Assembly (NCBI GenBank): GCA_029980465.1 | Contig: JARYIJ010000001.1 | Span: 248,001 to 312,000, forward strand | Reading direction: 5' to 3' | Length of the DNA: 64,000 bases | Source of the DNA: Pseudolabrys sp. | GTDB taxonomy: Bacteria > Pseudomonadota > Alphaproteobacteria > Rhizobiales > Xanthobacteraceae | Part shown: positions 18,815 to 63,869 of the stretch, piece after piece | How positions within the stretch are numbered: position 1 is the first letter of the stretch | How the letters are laid out: each line of letters opens with the position of its first letter | Program-made: the position numbers and the translations under genes | The notes under the pieces: generated by a model | What the model was told of the DNA's origin: nothing | What the model saw: only the letters and a program-made list of their open reading frames with translations | Database searches by the model: none

Positions 18815-18932
18815 GCGTCTGCGCGCCGCGCAGACCCCAGTTACCCGGTAATGACAGCCGAGAGTGGGACGAGGTTCTCATCCGCTTCATCCTGGGGAGG
18901 TGGGCTAGAAATGGTTCCGGGTTTTCAATCTC

Positions 18933-19088
18933 GTGTCCCGGACGCGGTGCAGTGCGAGCCATAAGCGCGTTTTGCGCGCTTATGGCGAAGTGGTGCACCG
19001 CAGAGCCGGGACCCCGGTTGATACACAAAGAAAGCGGGATCCCGGGTCTGCAGCGCACCGCTAACGCGCTGCGCTGCGCCCGGGACAC
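18933..19088. repeat. Composite intergenic repeat, copy A
   Basis: The element runs from GTGTCCCGG to CCGGGACAC and is itself palindromic at the ends. Inside it are two sub-palindromes: CATAAGCGCG/CGCGCTTATG with GGTGCA..TGCACC arms, and GTCTGCAGCGC/GCGCTGCGC. Copy B (19700-19865) is its reverse complement over nearly the whole length. The preceding 24 bases (AAATGGTTCCGGGTTTTCAA and CTC) are also found, in direct orientation, before copy B. The element type is typical of spacers in Bradyrhizobium relatives. Confidence 0.8.
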
Positions 19089-19112
19089 CAGCCATGTGCT
19101 GTCGTACGTGTA

Positions 19113-19140
19113 TTGACAATATTCCTAATATGACTATAGT
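19113..19140 (+). promoter_or_regulatory. Near-consensus sigma70 promoter with palindromic operator-like sequence
   Basis: TTGACA (19113-19118), 16-base spacer, TATAGT (19135-19140). It is AT-rich in an otherwise very GC-rich stretch. The -10 is embedded in a perfect 12-base palindrome TGACTATAGTCA (19131-19142), and the spacer holds ATATT-cct-AATAT (19119-19131). The direction points into the hairpin-rich region that follows. No gene with a normal coding pattern starts downstream. Confidence 0.65.
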
Positions 19141-19146
19141 CACACA

Positions 19147-19560
19147 GTCCGATCCGTCAAAGGGCGTCATCTAGAGGCGTGCTGATGGCGGGACCGGATG
19201 CGGTGCCTGCGGGTGGGTTTCGCAAGCCCATCCCCGGGAGGCCCGGGACCCCGCCCGACGGGCATTATGACCCGTCCGCAGGGAGCCTGCTTAAGCCGGG
19301 AACCCATCAATTGGGTCCGGCGAAGCGCGGCCCCGGGTCTGCGGACAGGCTGCGGCCGTCCGCGAAGCCGCGAGGGAGCGCCGGACGGCGCGAGCCTCTT
19401 CGCCAGAGGCTCTCCGCATCGCAAGGTGCGGAAACCAAGACGTTGCGCCGCCCGGCGCTCCGTCCCCTTCGGCTTGAGACGGAGGGAGGAAGATGGAAAG
19501 ACGACGCCCCCGCGTCGCTAACAACAGGGGCTGCGGAGCGTTGGCTGCGCGGGCTGTCTG
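19147..19560 (+). ncRNA. Candidate large structured RNA, unclassified
   Basis: A run of nested and consecutive perfect hairpins downstream of a strong promoter. Closing stem GGCGGG/CCCGCC (19187-19192/19250-19255) encloses TGGGTTT-cgc-AAGCCCA (19214-19230) and CCCGGG-agg-CCCGGG (19233-19247). Then come GACGGG/CCCGTC (19257-19276), GCAGG/CCTGC (19278-19290), GCCGG-ga-ACCCA/TGGGT-CCGGC (19295-19321) and GCGGAC/GTCCGC (19341-19363). Next is a three-way junction closed by GAGCGCCGG/CCGGCGCTC plus CGGCGC/GCGCCG (19376-19460) with arms GAGCCTC/GAGGCTC (19392-19412) and CCGCA/TGCGG (19414-19431). CCGTC/GACGG (19460-19482) and CGACGC-cccc-GCGTCG (19502-19517) follow. Unpaired GAAACCAAGACG sits in the junction. 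It does not match tmRNA, RNase P RNA, SRP RNA or 6S RNA as I know them. The 5' and 3' ends are guesses. Class unknown. Confidence 0.5.
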
Positions 19561-19606
19561 AAAATCGAAGCGCGCGTCTGCCTCAATCCTCATGGTGGGA
19601 AGCGCC

Positions 19607-19634
19607 GCAGATGTCGGATTTGCCCGACATCTGC
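19607..19634. other. Perfect 11-bp hairpin downstream of the RNA candidate
   Basis: GCAGATGTCGG (19607-19617) pairs perfectly with CCGACATCTGC (19624-19634) across a 6-base loop. There is no T run, so it is not an obvious terminator. It could be the 3' boundary of the structured RNA or a separate repeat. Confidence 0.5.
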
Positions 19635-19699
19635 ATGCTCACACGCTGCACTCACGCTCCTCAGAGTCTAACCGAAAATGATTCAGGGTTTTCAAACTC

Positions 19700-19865
19700 G
19701 TGTCCAGGGCGCGGCGCAGCGTGAAACGATGCGCTGCAGACCCGGGACACCGGTTTCTTTGTGGATCAATCGGGGTCCCGGCTCTGCGGTGCACCACGTC
19801 GCCATAGCGCGTCGAAGACGCGCGTAAACGCGCTTATGGTTCGTGCTGCACCGCGCCCGGGACAC
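19700..19865. repeat. Composite intergenic repeat, copy B (inverted relative to copy A)
   Basis: The reverse complement of this segment matches copy A (18933-19088) along its length, including GGTGCACCGCAGAGCCGGGACC and the ACAAAGAAA connector. The main difference is a 10-base insertion in the CATAAGCGCG stem. Together the two copies bracket the promoter and structured region. The remaining 192 bases up to the GNAT gene hold only a CTGAGAG/CTCTCAG hairpin (20019-20046) and no gene. Confidence 0.8.
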
Positions 19866-20057
19866 GCCGTTGATTTTGACGAGCTCTTTTCGAGTCAGAC
19901 TGTCAGGATGAGGAGTAACTCCGCGAGAACGAGCAGAGTGTGTGTGTCGCGCCGTGCTTTAATTTTGGGCGTCATTGTTCGCGAAGGCGGGCGGTCCAGT
20001 ACTCAACGCAATTGCCCCCTGAGAGATCGGCGTTTCGCGCTCTCAGAATGAGGAACG

Positions 20058-20519
20058 TTAAAGCCGGCGCTCCATGACATCGAACGGCGAGCGGCCCGGA
20101 TCCTGTCCCTCTCCCGTCACGACGAAGCCGAATTTGGCGAAATAGGCCCGGTTGCCGGGCAAGCTCTTGCGCACGCGCAACAGCAGCTTCGGCAGGCCGC
20201 GCGCCCGCGCCTCGCGCTCGGCGGCCCGCATCAATGCCGCGCCGACGCCGCGGCGTCGCCATTGCGGGTGCGTCGCCATCCGCGTCAGATCAAGCGCGTC
20301 GTCTTTGACCGCGCAGAACACGCTGCCGACGAACTCGCCGTTCGCCATGGCGACGAAAACGACGCCGTCGCGCTGCCGCGCCGCGAGATCACCGGCGGTC
20401 TCGTGAAGCACGCTCGACGGCGGCTCGAAACCCGCAAACGCCGCGTGGACCAATGCCATGATGTCGCCCAAGCGGTCGCGCGAGGTCCAAGGCTGAACGA
20501 TGACGTCGGGCGCGGCCAT
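20058..20519 (-). CDS. GNAT family N-acetyltransferase
   Basis: A 153-residue GNAT acetyltransferase using acetyl-CoA. The acetyl-CoA loop is visible as RMATHPQWRRRGVGAALMRAAE (R-x-x-G-x-G/A), followed by the helix and ARGLPKLLLRV, and the C-terminal GNRAYFAKFGFVVTG strand-helix typical of the fold. The start is the ATG at 20519, two bases after the stop of the antiporter gene, so they are translated from one message. A long reading of this frame up to 21458 is an out-of-frame shadow of the antiporter. The acceptor substrate is unknown. Confidence 0.85.
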   Translation of the reverse strand: MAAPDVIVQPWTSRDRLGDIMALVHAAFAGFEPPSSVLHETAGDLAARQRDGVVFVAMANGEFVGSVFCAVKDDALDLTRMATHPQWRRRGVGAALMRAAEREARARGLPKLLLRVRKSLPGNRAYFAKFGFVVTGEGQDPGRSPFDVMERRL

Positions 20520-63008: not shown

Positions 63009-63101
63009 AAGCACCCGCTGCCAAGGCTTGGGAGAGCCACGGCAAACCGTCCGAGACCGCGCCTGGGAGGGCGCGCGATCAGACGGCCGGAGGGGAGCAC
63101 G

Positions 63102-63869
63102 ATGGATAGCAACTCGTTGCTGATCGGACTGTCGCGTCAGGTCGCGCTCCAGCGCGAACTCGACGTCGTGTCCAACAACATCGCCAACATCAACACCACC
63201 GGTTTCAAGGCCGACAACTCGCTCTTCGAGGAGTACCTGTCGCCGACCGCGCGCACCGGCGCGCCGACCCAGAACAAGGTCAGCTTCGTCCTCGACCGCG
63301 GCATTTGGCACAACCTGTCGCAGGGCGCGACGCAGGAAACCGGCAATCCGCTCGACGTCGCCATCGACGGCAAGGGCTTCCTCGTCGTGCAGACGCCGAA
63401 CGGCGAGCGCTACACGCGCAACGGCGCGATGCAGATCGGCCCGAACGGCGTCCTGCAGACGAGCGACGGCTATCCCGTGCTCGGCGATTCCGGACCGATC
63501 ACCATCCAGCAGAACGACCGGCAGATTTCGATCAACGCCAACGGCACCGTCAGCGTGCGCGATGGCGACTCCATCCAGGACTCGCAGCGCGGCAAACTTC
63601 GCCTGGTGTCCTTCGACGACAGGCAGAGCCAGAACCTGACAAAGGAAGGCTCGAGCCTCTTTGCCGCGCCCAACGGCGTGACGCCGCAGCCGGACACGGC
63701 ATCGCGGTTCGTCCAGGGCGCGATCGAGAAATCCAACGTCACCGGCGTGATCGAGATCACGCGCATGATCGAGATCACGCGCAATTACGACCAGGTGGCC
63801 GCGATGATGAAGCAGCAAGGCGACATGCGCAGCAGCGCGATCGACAAGCTGGCCGACGTTCAGTCCTGA
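63102..63869 (+). CDS. flgF: Flagellar basal-body rod protein FlgF
   Basis: A 255-residue distal rod protein. The N-terminal rod motif is LSRQVALQRELDVVSNNIAN followed by INTTGFKADN, and NPLDVAIDGKGFLVVQTPNG is the FlgF/FlgG core. The C-terminal helix carries ITRMIEITRNYDQVAAMMKQ. GGAGGGGAG precedes the ATG. flgG follows 15 bases later. A sigma54 promoter lies upstream. Confidence 0.96.
   Translation: MDSNSLLIGLSRQVALQRELDVVSNNIANINTTGFKADNSLFEEYLSPTARTGAPTQNKVSFVLDRGIWHNLSQGATQETGNPLDVAIDGKGFLVVQTPNGERYTRNGAMQIGPNGVLQTSDGYPVLGDSGPITIQQNDRQISINANGTVSVRDGDSIQDSQRGKLRLVSFDDRQSQNLTKEGSSLFAAPNGVTPQPDTASRFVQGAIEKSNVTGVIEITRMIEITRNYDQVAAMMKQQGDMRSSAIDKLADVQS

What the first reader, a model, noticed from the sequence alone, without database searches (positions are those of the whole stretch)
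19147..19560. Undescribed structured RNA candidate behind a strong promoter
About 400 bases with no credible gene form at least ten perfect stems in succession, including a 15-bp interrupted long-range stem (19376-19391 with 19445-19460) closing a three-way junction. A near-consensus sigma70 promoter sits just upstream and points into it. Such a run of consecutive, mutually compatible stems is unlikely from GC content alone. It lacks the RNase P, tmRNA, SRP and 6S landmarks I know. It could be an abundant regulatory or scaffold RNA, or the core of a mobile element.
Basis: partly seen in the sequence, partly recalled or inferred. Interest (0 to 1): 0.8.

Follow-up and report, generated by a model that had tools for sequence, protein, structure and literature searches.

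The report
Multi-copy self-pairing structured RNA family
This bacterium, a likely relative of Pseudolabrys, carries twelve similar copies of a stretch of about 450 bases that dozens of related genera also hold, often in many copies, and whose paired bases change together as in a folded RNA; it is predicted to be transcribed from its own promoter and likely works by pairing with a second copy of itself.

Summary
Window 19113-19592 is one of 12 strong copies in this genome of a structured-RNA family that no Rfam model matches. A covariance model of its 5' domain finds it in 89 of 149 genomes of the taxonomic family, often 10-20 copies each, and in 17 of 297 of the order draw; no genome outside the order matched. 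A six-base loop palindrome is kept in 147 of 159 distinct copies while its letters change; adjacent bases cannot pair within one chain, so this points to copy-to-copy pairing. The promoter sits at a fixed place (122 of 182 copies; control 3). Some copies are lineage-specific (none at icd in 26 congeners); in another genus most are stable and two loci border a slot whose upstream genes, some of them anti-phage defence genes, differ in every genome compared. I read it as a dispersed gene family for a dimerising scaffold or regulatory RNA. Transcription, dimerisation and function are untested.

The parts
19113..19140 (+). sigma-70-type promoter of the RNA (-35 TTGACA 19113-19118, -10 TATAGT 19135-19140); left edge of the conserved unit
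   Evidence: 11 of 12 consensus bases; a promoter of at least 9 of 12 in 122 of 182 distinct copies, 104 of them with the -35 box 32-34 bases before the model start, against 3 of 182 in a control 300 bases upstream and 15 of 182 shuffled
19113..19592 (+). whole repeated unit (promoter plus structured RNA, predicted start near 19147)
   Evidence: 11 further copies at 84-96% identity in the own genome, sharing the left edge and, in several, the DNA up to 19592
19145..19294 (+). 5' domain modelled as R1: helices P2 (19148-19155 with 19191-19198), P3a (19165-19171 with 19184-19190), P4, P4b, P5, P6
   Evidence: 36 pairs, 89.0% paired, 117 double-change cells against 38.8 +/- 6.0 shuffled
19170..19175 (+). 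self-complementary loop hexamer TCTAGA at the apex of P3, predicted copy-to-copy contact
   Evidence: 147 of 159 distinct copies have a perfect six-base palindrome in this window against 36.1 shuffled, maximum 53; 98.6% self-complementary with 16 double changes against 4.2 +/- 1.9 in the 23-sequence alignment
19257..19276 (+). hairpin P5 (19257-19262 with 19271-19276)
   Evidence: 6 of 6 pairs with changes on both sides, 95.7% paired
19372..19464 (+). long-range stem closing the junction (19372-19383 with 19453-19464)
   Evidence: 98.4% paired in 91 distinct sequences, 67 double-change cells against 20.5 shuffled
19502..19530 (+). 3' H-type pseudoknot: stem 19502-19507 with 19512-19517, loop CCCC 19508-19511 with GGGG 19527-19530
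   Evidence: 70 sequences; pseudoknot helix 97.9% paired with changes on both sides at 4 of 4 pairs; whole structure 80 double-change cells against 27.3 shuffled
19531..19592 (+). 3' tail, one of two kinds found in the family; here the kind with the conserved GGCTGTNTGANAATNGAA segment
   Evidence: alignments

Best explanation
The window holds one copy of a multi-copy family of structured noncoding RNA genes, each predicted to be transcribed from its own sigma-70 promoter into a folded RNA of about 430-450 bases that likely pairs with a second copy of itself through a six-base palindromic loop and then likely acts as a dimeric scaffold or regulator. Shown from sequence: the copy number, the fixed promoter position, covarying helices, the 3' pseudoknot, and a loop that stays self-complementary while its letters change. 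Also shown, in another genus: promoter and RNA stay conserved at places where the DNA just upstream has been replaced. Inferred: transcription, dimer formation, a switch between the hairpins P3a and P3b, and action in trans rather than on one neighbour gene. Copies turn up at new intergenic places in some lineages and are inherited in place in others; how they spread is unknown.
For: Covariation in the 5' domain, long-range stem and pseudoknot. Covarying palindromic loop including two adjacent bases (UA 9, AU 6, CG 5, GC 3 of 23) and 147 of 159 distinct copies palindromic; the same argument is used for OLE and GOLLD contacts in PMC12286853 (passages). Promoter kept at a fixed distance. No open frame kept. 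Wide multi-copy distribution in the order. In five g27 genomes 35 of 37 fetched loci share more than 700 bases with a locus of another of these genomes. Neighbours are not recurrent.
Against: No transcript has been seen. No intrinsic terminator was found at the 3' end. The hexamer overlaps the top two pairs of P3a, and P3b, which would show it whole, does not covary. In one search the counts of pairs with double change (2; 125 of 500 shuffles reach it) and of pair types (110 of 500) are not unusual. Twelve of 159 distinct copies lack a perfect palindrome, and some other windows of the RNA also hold palindromes, up to 116 of 159. A palindrome could also be read as a DNA feature. Near-identical copies could partly reflect gene conversion.
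Confidence: 0.6

Rival explanations
1. A non-autonomous mobile DNA element: the repeat spreads by a transposase or recombinase encoded elsewhere, and its folding serves mobility (as single-stranded DNA or RNA) rather than a host function.
For: Eleven further copies at 84-96% identity; none at icd in 26 congeners; many model hits at contig ends, as of repeats that break assemblies; recombination between copies (L264 against L280 and L290); RNA present at locus I in G088, G066 and G107 but not in G124.
Against: No terminal repeats or target duplications seen by eye, no recurrent neighbour protein in 120 loci, no phage, plasmid or viral match; many copies stay at orthologous places in g27; the promoter is conserved.
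Confidence: 0.2
2. An anchor for gene exchange: the repeated RNA gene supplies homology, or a recognised structure, at which defence and other cassettes are swapped just upstream.
For: At g27 locus A (7 genomes) and locus B (4 genomes) the RNA and its downstream gene are shared while 1-2.5 kb just upstream differ in every genome; 5 of 10 upstream ORFs tested at loci A-C match defence models; upstream ORFs match far more defence families than downstream ones.
Against: Both borders are places where selection would hold the sequence anyway. Outside g27 only 3 of 20 tested upstream ORFs match, two of them one locus, and most Pfam matches upstream are ordinary housekeeping families. No defence cargo was seen by eye in the window's own genome. 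The 223-to-2 family ratio is inflated by a few proteins that match many models.
Confidence: 0.13
3. A cis-acting leader or terminator element of neighbouring genes.
For: It has its own promoter and lies between genes.
Against: Neighbours differ from copy to copy, and the nearest downstream ORF, picked by length, lies on the opposite strand in 106 of 158 loci.
Confidence: 0.04
4. Chance folding of a GC-rich repeat with no RNA role.
For: High GC content; GC-rich repeats of other kinds flank it.
Against: Fold z -7.9; compensatory changes beyond shuffled and slid controls in the 5' domain, the pseudoknot and the long-range stem.
Confidence: 0.03

Closest known systems
GOLLD, ROOL and OLE large ornate RNAs (PMC12286853; passages read)
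   Same: Large, elaborate bacterial RNA of unknown function (OLE has known partners); loop palindromes whose inner bases covary, taken there as proof of pairing between chains (OLE L9.3, GOLLD L21a).
   Different: No Rfam match to them; shorter; many copies per chromosome; no viral, phage or plasmid match. That GOLLD and ROOL sit in phages and prophages is from that paper.
Br-REP1 and Br-REP2 and other REP elements (PMC5082802; passages read)
   Same: Dispersed repeats with stem-loops in intergenic regions of related bacteria.
   Different: Those are palindromes of about 20-40 bases; this unit is about 480 bp with a promoter, several covarying helices and a pseudoknot. REP-like repeats do lie next to the copies here.
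Retroviral dimer initiation site (recalled, not tested)
   Same: A six-base palindromic loop proposed to start RNA dimers by a kissing contact.
   Different: Unrelated RNA and host; no genome packaging is implied.
Integron gene cassettes with attC sites (recalled, not tested)
   Same: A folded element lies 3' of exchangeable genes, some for defence.
   Different: Dispersed single copies, not arrays; own promoter; no integrase tested; the element stays when the cargo changes at the loci compared.

Membership tests
Any of the 4227 Rfam 15 families (incl. RNase P, tmRNA, SRP, 6S, ROOL, GOLLD, OLE) | covariance-model match at gathering score | tested here: not met
   none in 18815-20060; best permissive match 26.3 bits against a gathering score of 79
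Homo-oligomeric large RNA (as GOLLD/ROOL/OLE work) | covarying self-complementary loop that cannot pair within one chain | tested here: met
Homo-oligomeric large RNA (as GOLLD/ROOL/OLE work) | oligomer seen in vitro or in cells | not testable with these tools
   needs native gel, mass photometry or cryo-EM
Structured noncoding RNA gene | compensatory base changes beyond controls | tested here: met
Structured noncoding RNA gene | promoter at a conserved position | tested here: met
   122 of 182 copies against 3 of 182
Structured noncoding RNA gene | discrete transcript | not testable with these tools
   no expression data at hand
MITE or other DNA transposon | terminal inverted repeats and target-site duplication | tested here: inconclusive
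   none seen by eye at copy edges; the empty-site alignment at icd failed
REP element | short (about 20-40 base) extragenic palindrome as the repeated unit | tested here: not met
   unit of about 480 bp
Protein-coding gene | one frame kept open across copies | tested here: not met
   at most 27 of 173 copies stop-free over 400 nt in any frame
Integron cassette site (attC) | recombination by an integron integrase | not tested
   no integrase search was made

The most novel reading that the evidence does not exclude
A dispersed, self-pairing RNA gene family that is also the portable border of gene-exchange slots: its copies anchor the capture and swapping of anti-phage defence cassettes just upstream, an RNA-marked counterpart of integron cassettes, with dimerisation bringing distant slots together.
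Probability: 0.13. Interest if true: 0.92.

Novelty: new variant of a known kind. Interest (0 to 1): 0.72.

Why it matters
Few large structured bacterial RNAs are known, and most lack a function. This one comes with up to 10-20 natural variants per genome, strong covariation, a testable copy-to-copy contact and a conserved promoter, so transcript, dimer and deletion tests are direct. If its loci really border defence-gene slots, it would also be a sequence handle for finding defence systems in Hyphomicrobiales.

Tried and rejected
Known RNA families: none matched. Viral contigs by an exact pattern, phage and plasmid records by blastn: no match. A recurrent partner protein: among 120 loci the largest ORF clusters overlap the repeat itself; the largest others hold five loci or fewer, among them orthologous neighbourhoods of the same genus. 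An empty-site alignment at icd failed because the intergenic DNA of congeners does not align. At locus I, G124 has a different sequence and no model match. At the L276 locus, G066, G124 and G107 hold a diverged RNA (21-23 bits) rather than an empty site. Identity along the RNA at locus A was even between G026, G124 and G066 but fell to 52-64% in single 60-base blocks for G107 and G088; this could mean partial replacement and was not followed. Helix P7 (about 19239-19254 with 19325-19340) was judged by eye only. The hairpin P3b does not covary.

The first impression that upstream genes are overwhelmingly defence genes was cut back. Among 134 nearest upstream ORFs 223 PADLOC families match at 1e-5, against 2 among 137 downstream ORFs, but a few proteins match many models: one OLD-like protein 132 families at 1e-3, one methyltransferase 55 at 1e-5. 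At 1e-10 at least 6 of 31 upstream ORFs in g27 match, and among 94 others 10 families with one member each, which may be as few as two proteins. Downstream, one ORF matches at 9.4e-15 (a model named oxidoreductase) and one at 1.5e-6. Nine of the 134 rows were not carried into the split scans (L014, L020, L101, L157, L184, L188, L190, L196, L230); L101, the methyltransferase, is one. ORFs were picked by length and some are not genes. Most Pfam matches of upstream ORFs shown are ordinary enzymes and transporters.

Selections: the pseudoknot count uses 70 of 82 distinct segments, from 92 of 197 loci that passed a score against motif strings holding the paired letters, which leans towards the motif; three own near-duplicates (L041, L048, L049) and nine weak or doubtful segments were left out. 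The long-range stem count uses 130 of 197 loci, 91 distinct. Model R1 was calibrated on little sequence, so its E-values are rough.

Full report
Observation. The region 18815-20057 lies between icd (ends 18814; Pfam Iso_dh) and an ORF on the other strand that I read as an acetyltransferase. Nothing there reaches an Rfam gathering score; the best of 20 permissive matches is a microRNA model at 26.3 bits against a gathering score of 79. The strand 19140-19565 folds at -249.5 kcal/mol; 100 shuffles average -200.3 (sd 6.2), z -7.9. A promoter with 11 of 12 consensus bases sits at 19113-19140. No terminator-like site lies at the end of the unit; the only one found is at 19820-19833.

Copies. In the window's own genome (3.77 Mb, 2 contigs) blastn finds eleven further stretches matching the core at 84-96% identity. 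Aligned, they share the left edge at or near the -35 box (L046 only from about the transcript start) and fall into two types of middle part and two kinds of 3' end, combined in more than one way. DNA on either side (about 18908-19092 and 19658-19912) belongs to a separate palindromic repeat with dozens of matches.

Distribution. A BLAST search matched 106 of 296 genomes of the taxonomic family. A covariance model (R1) of the 5' domain, built from 23 sequences, gives 18 hits in the own genome, 12 of them at 138.9 bits or more. In draws that include the own genome it matches 89 of 149 genomes and 34 of 47 genera of the family, up to 20 hits where 20 candidates were scored, and 17 of 297 genomes and 13 of 123 genera of the order, two of the 17 being of the window's family. 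In the class draw (385 genomes) only the own genome matches; in the phylum draw (299) only it and one genome of the same family. These searches used stricter filters that lose weak matches. A DNA pattern in named genomes hits 41 stretches, in records titled Hyphomicrobiales, Rhizobiales, Pseudolabrys, Pseudorhodoplanes, Rhizobium (MAG) or Proteobacteria. Equal contig length (589,289 bases) identifies G142, of the window's genus, with a Pseudolabrys MAG, so the window's genus is at or near Pseudolabrys.

Structure. In 23 sequences the 36 pairs of P2, P3a, P4, P4b, P5 and P6 are 89.0% paired (76.5% shuffled), 23 pairs have compensatory changes (16.0 shuffled) and 117 cells change on both sides (38.8 +/- 6.0 shuffled); slid versions fall to 34-50% paired. 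The long-range stem is 98.4% paired in 91 distinct sequences, with 67 double changes against a shuffled mean of 20.5 and maximum of 29; the number of pairs with a double change, 5 of 12, equals the shuffled maximum. The 3' H-type pseudoknot, in 70 sequences, has 95.4% paired cells overall and 80 double changes against 27.3 +/- 3.5; its loop helix is 97.9% paired with double changes at 4 of 4 pairs. CCCC/GGGG here becomes CCCG/CGGG in many copies and CCGG/CCGG in L012.

Self-pairing loop. The apex of P3 holds a hexamer, TCTAGA here. In the 23 sequences its three palindromic pairs are 98.6% complementary with 16 double changes against 4.2 +/- 1.9; the innermost pair, two adjacent bases, is UA in 9, AU in 6, CG in 5 and GC in 3. 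Among 159 distinct copies 147 hold a perfect six-base palindrome in the loop window, of fourteen kinds (TCATGA 58, TCTAGA 32, TCCGGA 15, CTCGAG 13, TCGCGA 10, ACCGGT 6, CTGCAG 4, seven others once or twice; the rarest may be chance), against 36.1 in shuffled windows, maximum 53 of 200 runs. Other windows of the same length hold palindromes in 8 to 116 of 159 (same call); I put the high ones down to invariant words such as GGCGCC. Adjacent bases cannot pair inside one chain; the cryo-EM study of OLE, ROOL and GOLLD uses this argument for contacts between chains (PMC12286853, passages). The hexamer overlaps the top two pairs of P3a; the alternative hairpin P3b would show it whole, is 88.6% paired, but does not covary. 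A monomer-dimer switch is my inference.

Promoter and coding potential. In 182 distinct copies with enough upstream DNA, a promoter of at least 9 of 12 bases is found in 122, in 104 of them with the -35 box 32-34 bases before the model start; a control 300 bases upstream gives 3 and shuffled sequences give 15. Over 400 nt no frame is stop-free in more than 27 of 173 copies.

Mobility and stability. In 26 congeners whose icd was fetched, the model has no convincing match within about 1.5 kb; one 20-bit match (E 0.007) lies in L132. The window copy is thus lineage-specific at this place. In genus g27 all 18 genomes match a query carrying the element. In G026, G124, G066, G088 and G107, 35 of 37 fetched loci share more than 700 bases, mostly 90-97% alike, with a locus of another of these genomes, so many copies are inherited in place. 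L264 of G026 combines the flanks of two G088 loci (L280, L290), so copies also recombine.

Exchange slots. At g27 locus A seven genomes share the left gene up to its stop codon and, on the right, the sequence from the -35 box through the RNA; the roughly 1-2.5 kb between gave no pairwise match. Locus B shows the same for four genomes, with its left border outside a stop codon. Of ten upstream ORFs tested from loci A-C, five match defence models: OLD-like, two reverse transcriptases (UG17-like; UG20 at 2.7e-113), PDC-S15 and PDC-S14. By eye another cargo reads as a ParA-like ATPase with a RelA/SpoT protein. Outside g27, 3 of 20 nearest ORFs match, two of them one locus. Most Pfam matches shown for upstream ORFs are ordinary, and in the own genome I saw no defence cargo by eye. 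Both borders are where selection would hold the sequence anyway, so exchange at the RNA is a possibility, not a result.

Literature. Searches for structured repeats in Bradyrhizobium, defence islands with noncoding RNA, small RNAs of the Bradyrhizobium and Rhodopseudomonas group and Pseudolabrys RNA listed no paper that, from title and abstract, describes this family; the library holds open-licence papers only. PMC5082802 describes short Br-REP palindromes (passages).

Verdict. That this is a real structured-RNA family I hold at about 0.95; that it acts as a dimeric scaffold or regulator at 0.6. Expression, abundance, function and mode of spread are open.

Noticed in passing
window 18908-19092 and 19658-19912: Two inverted copies of a separate palindromic repeat of about 170-250 bp flank the RNA; the genome holds dozens of matches.
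   Followed up: partly
window 63021-63150: flg-Rhizobiales RNA (RF01736), 63.7 bits, the only Rfam match in the window.
   Followed up: no
window 19133-19160, - strand: An opposite-strand promoter-like site (TTGACG, TATAGT, 10 of 12) overlaps the RNA's promoter.
   Followed up: no
window 19553-19572 and tails of L010, L014, L037: One kind of 3' tail ends in GGCTGTTTGACAATTGAATC or close, which reminds me of a boxA antitermination site (recalled, not tested).
   Followed up: no
L353 685-1280 (G124): A diverged relative of the RNA (22.7 bits) with the promoter, a palindromic loop and the 3' pseudoknot, and an insert that reads as an open frame of about 80 codons.
   Followed up: partly
L301-L311 (genus g27, loci A and B): Hypervariable slots just upstream of the RNA hold a different cargo in each genome compared, some of it defence genes.
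   Followed up: partly
window 19118-19142: The promoter spacer holds small palindromes (ATATTCCTAATAT, GACTATAGTC) that vary between copies; possibly a regulator site.
   Followed up: no
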